From the NCBI RefSeq assembly GCF_016863295.1, contig NZ_BOOP01000044.1, positions 1-64,000 on the forward strand: DNA of 64,000 bases, in the 5' to 3' direction. The translations under genes were made by a program, and so were the position numbers. Shown one piece after another: positions 146 to 7,822 of this stretch. Under the pieces are notes generated by a model. The model ran no database searches, had not been told where the DNA came from, and saw only the letters and a program-made list of their open reading frames with translations. Position 1 is the first letter of the stretch; each line of letters starts with the position of its first letter. Origin of the DNA: Planotetraspora phitsanulokensis (lineage in GTDB: Bacteria; Actinomycetota; Actinomycetes; Streptosporangiales; Streptosporangiaceae).

Positions 146-1144
146 TCACGTGATCCCGAACGTCACCCGGTAGTTGCAGCGGCCCTTGCACGGCATCGTG
201 GCGGAGTCGTCGAAGGCGTACGAATACGCGTACGGCGCGGCCTTCTTGAACACCTGGGTGTAGTCCGTGGGCCACTTCGAGGGGATGCAGTTCTCCCGCC
301 CGGCCCACTTGCCGCGGCAGCAGTACGTGTCGCCGCCGAAGGCCGTGCACGGGTTCTTGCAGGCCACCATCTGGCCGCCGACCTGGAGTTGCATCTTGCC
401 CGGGCAACTTACGGCCTTGGTGCAGACGCCCTTGTAACAGCCGGAGGGGCTGACCGGGTCCTTGGTGCCGCCTCCCGAGATGTTGATGTACATCGGCAGG
501 TTGTAGCCGTCGACCATGCTGACGTCGTAGAAGTCCATTCCGCCCCAGGCCGCCAGGGAGAACTCGCCGAGCGTGGTGGGGGATCCCGTGCTGCCGACGC
601 ACTGGAAGACGCCCCCGCAGTCGCCGGTCTTGCAGTGCCCCCGCCCGGACGAGTCGAAGGAGCAGCCGGTGCGGCCCCAGAAGCGTCCACCCCATTTGTT
701 CGGGACCTGTACCGAGACGGTCTGGCCCGGGCGGAGCACCCAGCCGGTCGCCGAAAGCGGGTACTCGTCGCTCTTGTTGGAGGCGAGCCAGACCGTCTGG
801 TCCAGCTTGTTGACGAACGTGAACAGGCGCTTGCCCGCCGCGGCCTTCGCGGTGGTGCCGGACGGCGGGGTCTTCTTCGCCGGGGCGGAGCGCGAGGCCG
901 ACGGCCGGGGTGAGCCGCTCGGTTTGTGGCCGGGACGGGCGGTGCGCGACGGAGAGGCCGAAGGGTTCGCGGCCCCGTCCGCCGGTGCGGACGACCGGCC
1001 GGCCGCCGAGGCGGTCGTGGCGCTCCCGCGTGGGGAGGAGGGCCAGACCAGGACCACCACCGCCGCCGCCACCACCGCCAGGACCAGGGCGTACGGCTGC
1101 CACGCCCGGCCCGGCGCCCGTCTCCTCCTCGTCGTCATGGTCAC
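146..1144 (-). CDS. Secreted or membrane-anchored thaumatin-like protein
   Basis: 332 residues. A basic N-terminus (four Arg at 6-9) precedes a hydrophobic helix at about 17-34, then a Ser/Ala/Pro-rich linker to about 104, then a thaumatin domain to the end. The family signature is plain: RFWGRTGC at 154-161 followed by C171, TGDC at 173-176 and GG. The block with GEFSL and DFYDVSMVDGYN, which lines the acidic cleft of plant thaumatin-like proteins, is also present, and the domain has about 14 cysteines. Plant members bind beta-1,3-glucan, and some are antifungal or hydrolytic. Here the domain would lie outside the cell, tethered or released. It is divergent from a sigma factor carrying a beta-1,3-glucanase-type domain, which suggests a shared role against or around fungal walls (inference). 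The start ATG follows a GAGAGAAGGG ribosome site. The fold is confident; the activity is not. Confidence 0.88.
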   Translation of the reverse strand: MTMTTRRRRAPGRAWQPYALVLAVVAAAVVVLVWPSSPRGSATTASAAGRSSAPADGAANPSASPSRTARPGHKPSGSPRPSASRSAPAKKTPPSGTTAKAAAGKRLFTFVNKLDQTVWLASNKSDEYPLSATGWVLRPGQTVSVQVPNKWGGRFWGRTGCSFDSSGRGHCKTGDCGGVFQCVGSTGSPTTLGEFSLAAWGGMDFYDVSMVDGYNLPMYINISGGGTKDPVSPSGCYKGVCTKAVSCPGKMQLQVGGQMVACKNPCTAFGGDTYCCRGKWAGRENCIPSKWPTDYTQVFKKAAPYAYSYAFDDSATMPCKGRCNYRVTFGIT

Positions 1145-1236
1145 GCGCCCTTCTCTCCATGCCCGCCGATGAGGCCGGGAGCGCCCACGCCTCTGAACAG
1201 GAGACGGGAGGCGAGGAGCCCGACAACGGAAACCGG

Positions 1237-1263
1237 CGAACGAAGGCGGCGATTTTCGTTATC
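1237..1263. promoter_or_regulatory. Palindromic ECF-type promoter candidate between thaumatin and sigma genes
   Basis: On the plus strand GAAC (ending 1241) is followed after 15 bp by CGTT (1257-1260). On the minus strand the same bases read ATAAC, 15 bp, CGTTCG. AAC and CGTT are the usual -35 and -10 cores of ECF promoters, so one element could drive both divergent genes. The spacer is one base shorter than the common 16-17. Distances to the start codons are about 110 and 95 bases. No experimental support. Confidence 0.4.
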
Positions 1264-1293
1264 CGCCGCCCGCCCGCCGGTCTCCTGTATAGA

Positions 1294-1373: not shown

Positions 1374-3290
1374 ATGCCCGGAACCGGCAGGGGCGGACCC
1401 GACGCGGCGATGGTGGAGGCCGCGCGCGACGGAGACCAGCGGGCACTCGACGCCCTGGTCGCCGACTCCCTTCCGCTCGTCTACAACATCGTCGGCCGCG
1501 CGCTCAACGGGCACAACGACGTCGACGACGTCGTCCAGGAGACCCTGCTGCGGGTCGTCCGGGGGCTGCCCACGCTGCGTGACCCGGAGGCGTTCCGGTC
1601 ATGGCTGGTGGCCATCGCCGTACGGCAGGTGCGCGACCGCGAACAGGACCGGTCGGCCACGCAGAAGCGCCGGGCCGACCTCGACACGGCGGAGGAGATG
1701 CCGGATCCGGCCTCGGACTTCGCGGCCCTCACCATCCTCAGGCTCGGCCTCACCGACCAGCGCCGCGAGGTCGCCGAGGCGACCCGATGGCTGGACGCCG
1801 ACGACCGGGGACTGCTCGCCCTGTGGTGGCTGGAGGAGACCGGCGAACTGCGGCGCACCGACCTCGCCGGGGCCCTCGGCCTGTCCGGCCGTCACGCGGC
1901 CGTCCGCGTGCAGCGCATGAAAGAGCAGATGCAGCTCGCCCGGACCATCGTGCGGGCGCTCGGCTCCGCCGCCCGGTGCGCCGAACTGCTCTCCATGACG
2001 TGGAACTGGGACGGCAAGCCCAGCCCGCTCTGGCGCAAGCGCTTCGCCCGGCACGTGCGCGGCTGCGCCGACTGCGGGCGAAGCGGCCAGGGCATGCTGC
2101 CCATCGACCGCCTGCTCGCGGGCATTCCGCTGGTGCCGGTCCCCGCCGGCTTCGTCCTGCAGCACTTCCAGTCCATCCCCCCTGCCGCCTCCGAGGCGGC
2201 CGCGCACGCCGCTTCGCACCTTCCCCCTGGGCGGAGCGGCGTGCACCGGGCGGCCCACGCCGTCCGGGATCGGCCGCGCGGTGTCTTGTCCGTGTTGTCG
2301 CGCGGTCCCGTCGCGGGCACGGCCGCCGCCGGGGTGGCCGCGGTCGTCGTGGTGGGCGTCCTGGTGGCCGCCAACCGCCCGCCGCAGGTGCCGTCGGCCC
2401 AGGGCGTGGCGCCCCAGGCTGCCTCGACGGCGCTCCCGCCGAAGCCGTCGCCCTCGGCGTCCGTCAAGGCCTCGCGCAAGCCGTCCCCCACGCCCAGCAA
2501 GAAGGCCAAGCCCAAGGTGACCAAGCCGGCTCCGCCCCCTCCGGTCGTCGTGGCGAAGTCCGCGAAGAAGGGCGTGGGCGTGTGGGGCATGCCCGGCGTC
2601 AGCGCGTCTCTCAAGAAATCGGGCGCGAGCTGGTACTACACCTGGGCCACGACCCGCGACGGGATCACGACCCCCTCGTCGGCCGCGTTCGTGCCGATGA
2701 TCTGGGGAGCCGACAGCGTCACCAGCCAGAACCTCGCCAAGGCCAAGGCCGCCGGGCCGTACCTGCTGGGGTTCAACGAGCCCGACATGGGCGGGCAGGC
2801 GAACATGACGCCGGAGAAGGCGCTGTCGCTCTGGCCGAAGCTCATGTCGGCGGGCAAGGTGCTCGGCAGCCCCGCCGTGGCGTACGGCGGGGACCGCGCG
2901 GGCGGCTGGCTCGACAAGTTCATGTCGGGGGCGAAGGCGAAGGGTTACCGCGTCGACTTCATCACGCTGCACTGGTACGGCGGGGACTTCAACACCGCGA
3001 ACGCCACCAACCAGCTCAGGTCCTACATCCAGGCCGTGTACAAGCGCTACCACAAGCCGATCTGGCTGACCGAGTTCGCGCTCATCGACTTCTCGAACGG
3101 CACCCGCTTCCCGACGGACTCGCAGCAGGCGGCCTTCGTCACCTCGTCGACCAAGATGCTGGCCGGCCTGCCGTACGTGCAGCGCTACGCGTGGTTCGGC
3201 CTTCCGGCCGACAAGAAGCCCGGCACCGGGCTGTTCACGACCACGGGCGCGGCCACGCCGGCCGGCCGCGCGTTCCAGGCGGCCCGCTGA
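1374..3290 (+). CDS. ECF sigma factor fused to ZAS-like anti-sigma motif, membrane helix and outer GH128-like glycosidase domain
   Basis: 638 residues in four parts. Residues about 11-95 are sigma-70 region 2 (DDVVQETLLRVVRGL, FRSWLVAIAVRQVRDRE); about 120-200 is a helical region in the position of region 4. Residues 200-243 hold H227-x3-C231-x2-C234, the zinc-binding anti-sigma motif, after a conserved-looking Trp-rich stretch. A helix at about 312-333 (AAGVAAVVVVGVLVAANRP) and a Pro/Lys/Ser linker lead to a glycoside hydrolase domain (about 399-638) of the GH128/Asl1 type, with candidate catalytic glutamates E469 (GFNEPD) and E567 (WLTEF). GH128 enzymes act on beta-1,3-glucan. The topology puts the sigma part inside and the glycosidase outside. 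ECF groups with C-terminal membrane and carbohydrate-active extensions are known in actinobacteria. Release of the sigma part by proteolysis on ligand binding is inference. Confidence 0.85.
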   Translation: MPGTGRGGPDAAMVEAARDGDQRALDALVADSLPLVYNIVGRALNGHNDVDDVVQETLLRVVRGLPTLRDPEAFRSWLVAIAVRQVRDREQDRSATQKRRADLDTAEEMPDPASDFAALTILRLGLTDQRREVAEATRWLDADDRGLLALWWLEETGELRRTDLAGALGLSGRHAAVRVQRMKEQMQLARTIVRALGSAARCAELLSMTWNWDGKPSPLWRKRFARHVRGCADCGRSGQGMLPIDRLLAGIPLVPVPAGFVLQHFQSIPPAASEAAAHAASHLPPGRSGVHRAAHAVRDRPRGVLSVLSRGPVAGTAAAGVAAVVVVGVLVAANRPPQVPSAQGVAPQAASTALPPKPSPSASVKASRKPSPTPSKKAKPKVTKPAPPPPVVVAKSAKKGVGVWGMPGVSASLKKSGASWYYTWATTRDGITTPSSAAFVPMIWGADSVTSQNLAKAKAAGPYLLGFNEPDMGGQANMTPEKALSLWPKLMSAGKVLGSPAVAYGGDRAGGWLDKFMSGAKAKGYRVDFITLHWYGGDFNTANATNQLRSYIQAVYKRYHKPIWLTEFALIDFSNGTRFPTDSQQAAFVTSSTKMLAGLPYVQRYAWFGLPADKKPGTGLFTTTGAATPAGRAFQAAR

Positions 3291-6625: not shown

Positions 6626-7822
6626 ATGCGATTAAGGCAGGGCGCCGTTCTCCTCGTCACGCTCGTCCTGGTGATCGGCGTATGGGGCTGGGTGGCGCTG
6701 AAGCCGGGCCGGTCCGAGGCGACCCAGGCGGTCGCGGCCGGAGCCTCGAGCCCGGGCGTGAGCCCGGCCCCGACCTCGAAGGCGCATCGGGATCCGCGGT
6801 CGGCTCTCACGCGGGTCAAACCCCGTCAGCCGCCGTTCAAGGCCGGGAACCCCAACGGGCGGGCCGCCGTTCCGGCGGAGGCCAGGGCGGTCGACACGTC
6901 GCATCCGACGCGGGTCGTCGGGAACGGCACGCCGGCGAGCTGCACGTCGAAGGCCGTCGTCGCGGCGGTCGCCGCGGGCGGGGTGATCACCTTCTCCTGC
7001 GGCCCCGATCCCGTGACGATCACCATGAGCGCCACCGCGAAGGTCCGTAACTCCAGCGCCCGGGTGGTCATCGACGGAGGCGGCCTGGTGACGCTCAGCG
7101 GAGGGGGCAAGAGGCGCATCCTCTACATGAACACCTGTGACAAGGCACAGCAGTGGACGACGTCGCACTGCGACGACCAGGAGCAGCCGCAGCTGACCGT
7201 GCAGAACCTGACGCTGGCCGACGGCGACGCCACGGGGCAGACCGTCGACGGGGGAGGCGGCGGCGCCATGTTCGTGCGCGGCGGCCGGGTCAAGGTGGTG
7301 AACTCTCGGTTCGTCCGCAACCGGTGTGACGCCACGGGACCCGATCTCGGCGGAGCCGCCATCCGGGTGCTGGACCAGTCGCGTGATCTGCCGGTCTACA
7401 TCGTGAGCAGCACGTTCGGCGGGGCCCCGGGCCAGGGCGGGATGTGCTCCAACGGCGGGGCGCTGAGCAGCATCGGGGTCTCGTGGGTCGTGCTGAACAG
7501 TGTCATGACCTACAACCGGGCGATCGGCAACGGCGCCAACCCCGCGCGCGGGGGGACTCCCGGCGGGGGGAGCGGCGGAGCCGTCTATACCGACGGCAAC
7601 CGCTTCACCGTGCGGATCGCGGGCTCGATCGTGACGGACAACCAGGCGAAGGAGGGCGGCGGGGCCGTGTTCTTCGTCAGCAACGACCGCACCGGCACGA
7701 TGAGCATCGAGGGCTCGACCCTGCGCCGCAATCCCAGCGCGGGGTTCGAGACCGCGGGCCTGCCCGGCATCTTCTTCCTCGGCGCCCGCAAGCCGTCCGT
7801 GTCGTCCTCCACCCTCGCATGA
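6626..7822 (+). CDS. Secreted right-handed beta-helix (pectate-lyase-like fold) protein
   Basis: 398 residues. A signal-anchor or signal peptide lies at about 7-25 (AVLLVTLVLVIGVWGWVAL), then a linker to about 100. From there the protein shows short strands with conserved turns typical of parallel beta-helices: VITFSCGPDPVTITM, VVIDGGGLVTLSGG, LTVQNLTLADGDA, GGGGAMFVRGGRVKVVNSRF, GGAVYTDGNRFTV, GGGAVFFVSND. Cysteines are few and may pair. Similar proteins are secreted by many soil actinomycetes, with polysaccharide-lyase, adhesive or unknown functions; no catalytic set is recognised. The start lacks a ribosome site but has a -10 box 6 nt away, pointing to leaderless translation. Confidence 0.75.
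   Translation: MRLRQGAVLLVTLVLVIGVWGWVALKPGRSEATQAVAAGASSPGVSPAPTSKAHRDPRSALTRVKPRQPPFKAGNPNGRAAVPAEARAVDTSHPTRVVGNGTPASCTSKAVVAAVAAGGVITFSCGPDPVTITMSATAKVRNSSARVVIDGGGLVTLSGGGKRRILYMNTCDKAQQWTTSHCDDQEQPQLTVQNLTLADGDATGQTVDGGGGGAMFVRGGRVKVVNSRFVRNRCDATGPDLGGAAIRVLDQSRDLPVYIVSSTFGGAPGQGGMCSNGGALSSIGVSWVVLNSVMTYNRAIGNGANPARGGTPGGGSGGAVYTDGNRFTVRIAGSIVTDNQAKEGGGAVFFVSNDRTGTMSIEGSTLRRNPSAGFETAGLPGIFFLGARKPSVSSSTLA

What the first reader, a model, noticed from the sequence alone, without database searches (positions are those of the whole stretch)
1374..3290. One-protein sigma/anti-sigma/glucan-sensor switch facing a thaumatin gene
The ORF joins an ECF sigma domain, a ZAS-type H227-x3-C231-x2-C234 motif, one membrane helix and an outer GH128-like domain with both candidate glutamates (E469, E567). 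GH128 acts on beta-1,3-glucan, and thaumatin-like proteins bind beta-1,3-glucan; the divergent neighbour is a thaumatin-like protein with the acidic-cleft residues. Together this looks like a fungal-wall sensing and response module: the glycosidase domain senses or trims glucan, the sigma part is freed, and the secreted thaumatin protein is induced. Sigma-carbohydrate fusions are known as a class; the pairing with thaumatin appears worth describing.
Basis: partly seen in the sequence, partly recalled or inferred. Interest (0 to 1): 0.88.

Follow-up and report, generated by a model that had tools for sequence, protein, structure and literature searches.

The report
Glucan-sensing sigma switch with thaumatin gene
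A soil actinomycete carries a single membrane-spanning protein that looks like a gene switch on the inside and an enzyme for a fungal-wall sugar (beta-1,3-glucan) on the outside, and a shared promoter signature suggests that it turns on itself and a neighbouring thaumatin-like (plant antifungal type) protein; this is a prediction that can be tested directly, not yet an experiment.

Summary
The 638-aa ORF joins ECF sigma region 2, a zinc anti-sigma-like segment (C202, H227, C231, C234), one membrane helix and a GH128 subgroup I glucanase-type domain with both catalytic glutamates. The divergent neighbour is a thaumatin-like protein (TLP).

In this genome that pattern occurs exactly twice, at those two places. 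A matrix trained on sigma upstream sites finds the element before TLP, CBM32-type and GH128 genes in relatives; 3 of 88 sites fall elsewhere. TLP was found in 8 of 120 sampled family genomes, and all 8 carry the fused sigma. Another genus has TLP-GH128 fusion proteins, though without the element.

Best reading: a one-protein beta-1,3-glucan switch that autoregulates and induces exported glucan-acting proteins. TLP is a common partner, not the only one. Glucan sensing, release of sigma and a fungal purpose are inferred. Sigma fusions of this kind (ECF52/53) are already described; the TLP link, element and regulon did not appear in the papers I could search. Verdict: new variant of a known kind.

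The parts
1374..3290 (+). fused ECF sigma - ZAS-like - TM - GH128 protein, 638 aa
1455..1643 (+). sigma-70 region 2 (residues 28-90)
   Evidence: PF04542 E 2.1e-12
1758..1964 (+). presumed sigma region 4 (helices about 129-197); Pfam Sigma70_r4 not matched, only weak HTH models
1977..2075 (+). ZAS-like anti-sigma core, C202-x24-H227-x3-C231-x2-C234
   Evidence: conserved in homologues; zf-HC2 in 3 of 30 members
2310..2366 (+). single membrane segment (residues 313-331)
   Evidence: KD 2.44; 53 of 54 homologues >=1.6; no confident helix in the AlphaFold model
2376..2558 (+). Pro/Ser/Lys-rich linker (residues 335-395)
   Evidence: sequence; low pLDDT
2559..3287 (+). outer GH128 subgroup I domain (396-638), with E469 (2778-2780) and E567 (3072-3074)
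146..1144 (-). thaumatin-like protein: N-terminal export/anchor helix, low-complexity linker, TLP domain (158-811)
   Evidence: PF00314 E 2.4e-61; the only PF00314 match in this genome
1253..1285 (+). putative promoter of the sigma gene: TTT-N2-GTTATC (1258-1263), N16, GTCTCC (1280-1285); 88 nt to ATG
1200..1232 (-). putative promoter of the TLP gene: TTT-N2-GTTGTC (1227-1222), N16, GTCTCC (1205-1200); 55 nt to GTG

Best explanation
A one-protein transmembrane switch. The outer GH128 domain binds (and probably cuts) beta-1,3-glucan. This changes the state of the single-pass protein, most likely through regulated proteolysis near the membrane. The cytoplasmic ZAS-like segment then stops holding the ECF sigma, and the sigma binds RNA polymerase. 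It recognises TTT-N2-GTTRTC-N16-18-GTCTCC, which in this genome lies in front of the sigma's own gene and the divergent thaumatin-like gene. The output is more sensor plus an exported TLP expected to bind or attack the same glucan. Shown by computation: domains, conserved catalytic and zinc-type residues, membrane segment, shared promoter-like element and its near-exclusive placement. Inferred: that this sigma reads that element, the ligand, the release step and the fungal purpose.
For: Domains and catalytic/Zn residues. Strict pattern GTTRTC-N16-18-GTCHCC: 66 hits in 1.05 Mb of loci (size) against 0-5 for each of 11 other 3-nt spacer windows; 61 of 66 within 300 nt of a sigma/GH128, TLP or CBM32-cluster gene. 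PWM trained on 37 sigma sites: 85 of 88 sites scoring >=20 lie within 400 nt of such genes, 27 of them TLP; three block shuffles give 3 in total. Held-out 27 loci: 24 hits, all by my reading of coordinates in front of GH128, sigma or TLP genes. Genome-wide: 21 sites in 12 of 61 family genomes, reversed control 0, exactly 2 in this genome; 18 of 21 front module genes, 2 run to contig ends, 1 unrelated. All 8 TLP genomes of 120 carry the fused sigma. TLP-positive genomes have the pattern in 5 of 5, TLP-negative in 7 of 56 (Fisher p 1.3e-4; not corrected for kinship). TLP-GH128 fusion proteins. N-terminal model matches anti-sigma-bound CnrH and SigW best.
Against: No expression, binding or cleavage data. 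18 of 54 centres have no TLP, CBM32-cluster or extra GH128 gene near. The TLP-GH128 fusion genes show no such element within the roughly 1.5 kb flanks read. The fused sigma's base rate in the family is unknown because the search failed. One strong site (L141, PWM 29.4) has no module gene. Three of 21 divergent TLP genes lack a strong site where expected (L048 14.8, L069 none, L067 only at 514 nt). Micromonospora GH128 genes carry the element with no sigma in the same gene. Weaker variants of the element were not searched genome-wide. The -35-like half is unusual for ECF promoters (my knowledge). In one search two other anti-sigma-bound sigmas (AlgU-MucA, SigE-RseA) fit poorly, so the model does not separate bound from free states cleanly.
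Confidence: 0.66

Rival explanations
1. The element is an operator or promoter read by another regulator; the fused sigma only shares that regulon, including its own gene.
For: Micromonospora GH128 genes carry the element with no sigma domain in the same gene. No binding data.
Against: The element is asymmetric, with fixed 16-18 spacing, and the sites counted face the gene on its own strand, as promoters do. It sits before most fused sigma genes, as expected for autoregulation. Sigma-ZAS relatives with other outer domains also carry the core pattern (2 of 5 checked). This genome has no close paralogue of the sigma: the next match is E 1.4e-7.
Confidence: 0.2
2. The outer domain senses something else (own wall stress, plant callose, a bacterial glucan), and the TLP is a binding protein for that ligand rather than an antifungal agent.
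For: Relatives carry CAP or AbfB outer domains, so ligands vary in the group; the biological source of glucan cannot be read from sequence.
Against: The outer domain is a GH128 subgroup I type with both glutamates kept in 54 of 54; partners (TLP, GH128) point to the same polymer.
Confidence: 0.25
3. The pairing is an accident of shared ancestry: TLP and sigma stay neighbours in a few lineages with no regulatory link.
For: TLP-linked centres are mostly Streptomyces (14 of 24) and Planotetraspora (5 of 24); TLP-GH128 fusion genes lack the element.
Against: The same element precedes different partners in other lineages and genes away from the sigma; TLP position varies (divergent, convergent, downstream) yet linkage persists.
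Confidence: 0.06
4. The protein is not released; a membrane-tethered sigma binds polymerase at the membrane after a glucan-driven conformational change.
For: The ZAS segment lies between sigma and TM, so cutting at the membrane alone would leave it attached (sequence).
Against: A review expects ECF48/52/53-type fusions to be activated by proteolysis, with IutY as the characterised case (passages of PMC8999054).
Confidence: 0.25

Closest known systems
ECF52/ECF53 (and ECF48) sigma factors with fused ZAS, TM and outer extension (SCO4117; ECF53 example WP_030276194.1)
   Same: Single protein: ECF sigma, ZAS-type zinc finger, one to two TM helices; some with predicted glycosyl hydrolase or carbohydrate-binding outer domains (passages of PMC8999054 and PMC10766802).
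   Different: I could not compare with the group's reference sequences. The TLP partner, the promoter element and the beta-glucan regulon are not in those passages. SCO4117 ends in a carbohydrate-binding domain, not GH128.
IutY (ECF243), proteolytically activated sigma/anti-sigma fusion
   Same: Sigma fused C-terminally to a membrane anti-sigma (passage).
   Different: Siderophore signalling; no sugar enzyme.
AmGH128_I, endo-beta-1,3-glucanase of Amycolatopsis mediterranei (6UAQ)
   Same: Outer domain: E 6.2e-89, TM-score 0.96-0.97 by target length, both catalytic glutamates.
   Different: A free enzyme; here it is the outer end of a sigma factor.
Plant PR-5 thaumatin-like proteins (e.g. 3ZS3, zeamatin)
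   Same: TLP domain E 6.6e-47 to 3ZS3 with cleft-type acidic residues.
   Different: 14 cysteines instead of 16, bacterial, long linker with an export or anchor helix; activity untested.
TLPs fused to glycosyl hydrolase domains
   Same: A review states that TLPs of the rust Puccinia graminis frequently contain glycosyl hydrolase domains (passage of PMC13148976); five unnamed actinomycete genomes here have TLP-GH128 in one chain.
   Different: In the window TLP and GH128 are on separate proteins, with GH128 part of a sigma factor.
SigW-RsiW and CnrH-CnrY complexes
   Same: The N-terminal 260-residue model fits the bound sigmas best (TM-score 0.76-0.78 by target length).
   Different: Two separate proteins there; one chain here.

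Membership tests
ECF sigma factor | sigma-70 region 2 | tested here: met
   PF04542 E 2.1e-12; NCBIfam sigma70-ECF 51.7 bits against 42.9; 30 of 30 members
ECF sigma factor | region 4 DNA-binding domain | tested here: inconclusive
   No Sigma70_r4 hit; weak HTH models only; profile of 30 spans CnrH 7-181; fold aligns over 192 columns with CnrH
ZAS anti-sigma domain | H-x3-C-x2-C with an upstream fourth Zn ligand | tested here: met
   C202-x24-H-x3-C-x2-C; the fourth-ligand pattern is recalled
ZAS anti-sigma domain | profile match zf-HC2 | tested here: inconclusive
   3 of 30 members, best E 3.5e-4; not the window protein
ECF53 group | fused ZAS, TM and outer carbohydrate-active domain | tested here: met
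   description from passages
ECF53 group | match to the group's reference profile | not testable with these tools
   the two classification papers tried are not held
GH128 subgroup I | closest family and fold; two catalytic Glu | tested here: met
[quoted passage not shown]
   needs assay
Thaumatin family | PF00314 domain | tested here: met
   E 2.4e-61, 207.5 bits against cut-off 27.4
Thaumatin family | REDDD cleft residues | tested here: met
   R158, E194, D207, D212, D312/D313 align with 3ZS3; motif from passages, its mapping to these residues is recalled
Thaumatin family | 16 conserved cysteines (eukaryote TLPs, passage) | tested here: not met
   14 Cys in the window protein; some eukaryotic members also depart from 16

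The most novel reading that the evidence does not exclude
A catalytically active endo-beta-1,3-glucanase is itself the receptor of a transmembrane sigma factor, so that cutting or gripping fungal glucan at the cell surface is converted within one polypeptide into transcription of a dedicated glucan-targeting arsenal (TLP, CBM32-DUF1996, GH128). That would be a bacterial counterpart of the plant PR-5/glucanase response with a promoter code of its own, and one of a set of interchangeable outer domains (GH128, CAP, AbfB, others) on one sigma-ZAS chassis.
Probability: 0.33. Interest if true: 0.82.

Novelty: new variant of a known kind. Interest (0 to 1): 0.63.

Why it matters
Fused ECF sigma factors with sugar-active outer domains have been predicted but, per a passage of PMC10766802, not experimentally validated. 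This locus supplies a predicted ligand class, two facing promoter-like sites in one region of about 230 bp, and an element specific enough to list targets genome-wide. It makes a single-gene reporter test of one-protein signalling feasible. It also gives a function-level lead for bacterial thaumatin-like proteins and for DUF1996, and a possible ready-made glucan or fungus biosensor.

Tried and rejected
Rejected: chance juxtaposition of TLP and sigma. Rejected: TLP as universal partner (21 of 54 divergent, 24 of 54 within six genes). Rejected: the 5 further strict-pattern hits in this genome as targets (2 hits for the reversed control); they lack the TTT context and their loci of about 3 kb score at most 11.3. 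Rejected as a target: site L141; it lies inside a reverse-strand ORF with an HTH-like start. Not obtained: fused-sigma frequency in the family (no answer). Literature: searches. No listing showed a bacterial TLP-sigma link; the one paper and the five were seen as listings only. Two classification papers and the GH128 structure paper are not held, so absence in print is not established.

Sample limits: one search kept the best 80 of 105 relatives (79 loci), so the set leans to close relatives. L002 and L010-L013 duplicate the window or named species and were left out of neighbour counts. L060, L061 and L076 (sigma and GH128 in different frames) were left out of the 54. Gene calls in scripts come from my own codon-bias caller, so starts can be off. 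CBM32 is my name for the F5/8 type C domain; of that neighbour cluster one member was Pfam-scanned. CBM32-cluster genes were counted within two genes, TLP and GH128 within six. The 37 PWM training sites are among the 88 sites; the TLP, CBM32-cluster and sites are independent of training. In one search, five loci with the GH128 gene cut at the contig start gave no hit. 'None' counts include L034 and L037, whose upstream gene is cut by the contig end. The Frankia-like genome G368 has a contig of the same length as that of L032 and is probably the same record. For the 5 of 5 against 7 of 56 test, genomes G005-G063 are taken as TLP-negative unless one search listed them, since those handles were first given in that draw.

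Full report
What is there. The window starts at the first base of contig C44 of a genome whose nearest named relatives are Planotetraspora species. ORF 1374-3290 encodes 638 aa with sigma-70 region 2, a helical region-4 stretch that Pfam does not recognise, a C-x24-H-x3-C-x2-C segment, one hydrophobic segment, a Pro/Ser/Lys linker and a GH128 domain. The outer domain matches AmGH128_I (E 6.2e-89), and in the model it fits that enzyme with TM-score 0.96-0.97 by target length. E567 aligns with the residue replaced in the E199Q and E199A entries. In 54 fused relatives the three ZAS residues and both glutamates never vary. The membrane segment scores at least 1.6 in 53 of 54, with more Arg/Lys on its N-terminal side in 44 of 54, so the GH128 domain should be outside.

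The N-terminal 260 residues modelled with pTM 0.72. The best solved matches are ECF sigmas bound by anti-sigmas: CnrH-CnrY and SigW-RsiW, TM-score 0.76-0.78 by target length; RpoE-NepR gives 0.74. Sigmas in initiation complexes give 0.29-0.40 (5zx2, 9m9e, 6jbq), but two other anti-sigma-bound sigmas, AlgU-MucA and SigE-RseA, give only 0.42-0.46. The picture fits a ZAS part holding sigma in an off state without proving it. zf-HC2 itself is found in only 3 of 30 members.

The neighbour. ORF 146-1144 (-) is a thaumatin-like protein (PF00314, 207.5 bits), nearest to plant TLPs among solved structures, with 14 cysteines and the acidic-cleft positions by alignment (mapping recalled). Its N-terminal helix could be a signal peptide or an anchor. 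It is the only PF00314 match in this genome. [quoted passage not shown]

Linkage. Of 54 centres (53 fused genes in named loci plus the window), TLP lies next door and divergent in 21, and within six genes in 24. CBM32-cluster genes are within two genes in 10, another GH128 within six in 6, and none of these in 18. TLP-linked centres are Planotetraspora, Streptomyces, Streptacidiphilus, Hamadaea, Actinospica and one Frankia MAG locus that counts twice. In the bacterial family, 8 of 120 sampled genomes have a TLP and all 8 have the fused sigma. In one of them TLP is convergent with it, and both genes have the element. In three draft genomes both genes sit at contig ends; two pairs of ends share 22 and 44 identical bases, consistent with adjacency, and one pair does not. 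Across 393 class genomes 9 have a TLP. All 8 other than the window's match part of the query. One, probably the Frankia MAG again, has sigma and TLP adjacent. Seven, from one unnamed genus, have a more distant TLP tied to GH128: one polypeptide in five, adjacent genes in one, both parts at contig ends in one. I take that genus for Streptomyces; no call names it. Those fusions suggest that TLP and GH128 act on the same substrate, but their genes show no promoter element in the flanks read. TLP-glycosyl hydrolase fusions are also in print for a rust fungus (passage of PMC13148976).

The promoter element. Aligning the divergent region shows TTT-N2-GTTRTC-N16-GTCTCC facing each gene: sigma 1253-1285 (+), TLP 1200-1232 (-). 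In 1.05 Mb of loci the pattern GTTRTC-N-GTCHCC occurs 66 times with a 16-18 spacer and 0-5 times in each of 11 other three-base spacer windows; 61 of 66 are within 300 nt of a sigma/GH128, TLP or CBM32-cluster gene. Of the other five, three precede the same kinds of gene at 311-354 nt, and two face a contig end. A matrix built from 37 sigma sites gives 88 sites at score 20 or more: 51 sigma/GH128, 27 TLP, 7 CBM32-cluster, 3 elsewhere (two facing contig ends, one a TLP at 514 nt); three block-shuffled copies give 3 in all. Of the 21 divergent TLP genes, 18 have a site scoring at least 20 within the region tested; L067 has one at 514 nt, L048 scores 14.8, L069 has none. In 27 loci not used for training there are 24 sites, all in front of GH128, sigma or TLP genes by my reading of coordinates; five loci whose GH128 gene is cut at the contig start gave none.

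Genome-wide. The pattern with TTT gives 21 sites in 12 of 61 family genomes and none with the reversed control; this genome has exactly the two divergent sites. Without TTT this genome has 7 matches against 2 for the control. Eighteen of the 21 front module genes, including CBM32-type and CBM32-GH128 genes on other contigs than the sigma. One of these (L157) fronts a short frame that matches only 53 residues of the CBM32-DUF1996 protein. Two sites run to contig ends (one of these ends shares 22 bases with a TLP contig), and one (L141) is unrelated. TLP-positive genomes carry the pattern in 5 of 5 and TLP-negative in 7 of 56 (kinship not corrected). Weaker variants, such as the GTCACC form before Streptomyces TLP genes, were not searched genome-wide.

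Mechanism. Most likely: glucan engages the outer GH128 domain; the single-pass protein is processed or rearranged; sigma escapes the ZAS part and transcribes its own gene and the TLP gene. Positive autoregulation would sharpen the switch. Because the ZAS part lies between sigma and membrane, cleavage at the membrane would have to be followed by loss or opening of the ZAS part. Fused ECF48/52/53 groups are expected to act by proteolysis, with IutY the characterised case (passages of PMC8999054). Whether catalysis matters is open, but the invariant glutamates argue for an active enzyme.

Compared with the known. ECF52/53 fusions with ZAS, TM and carbohydrate-active outer parts are described, and PMC10766802 states that validation is lacking (passages). 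The class is therefore not new. New here, as far as my searches go, are the TLP partnership, the promoter element and the compact beta-glucan regulon. The same chassis carries CAP (three proteins), AbfB (one) or an unassigned (one) outer domain in four of the seven genomes of the other genus.

Noticed in passing
L070, L074, L075, L077, L078, L080, L082-L084, L086, L089, L090 (Micromonospora): GH128 with an N-terminal membrane anchor but no sigma domain, still preceded by the promoter element; the sigma that would read it was not looked for.
   Followed up: partly
L134, L135, L136, L137, L138: Sigma-ZAS-TM proteins with CAP, AbfB or unassigned outer domains; two of the five loci (L136, L138) keep the core promoter pattern.
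   Followed up: partly
L118, L120, L121, L122, L123: Single-chain TLP-GH128 proteins in five genomes of one unnamed genus, without the promoter element in the flanks read; one was Pfam-scanned.
   Followed up: partly
L139 5585-7612 and L032 12117-14129 (probably the same gene): Tandem second sigma-GH128 copy in a Frankia MAG, with an altered region 2 and no strong promoter element.
   Followed up: no
L020 7965-9464 (-) and its neighbour cluster: F5/8 type C (CBM32-type) plus DUF1996 proteins are recurrent divergent partners and predicted regulon members, a lead on DUF1996 function.
   Followed up: partly
window 6626-7822: Protein of 398 aa with an N-terminal hydrophobic stretch and no Pfam hit, conserved downstream in Planotetraspora.
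   Followed up: no
L036, L038-L042 (Actinoplanes group): Fused sigma gene next to an ATPase of RsbW-like appearance (family name recalled, not searched) and no glucan partner near; the sigma's own element is kept in 5 of 6.
   Followed up: no
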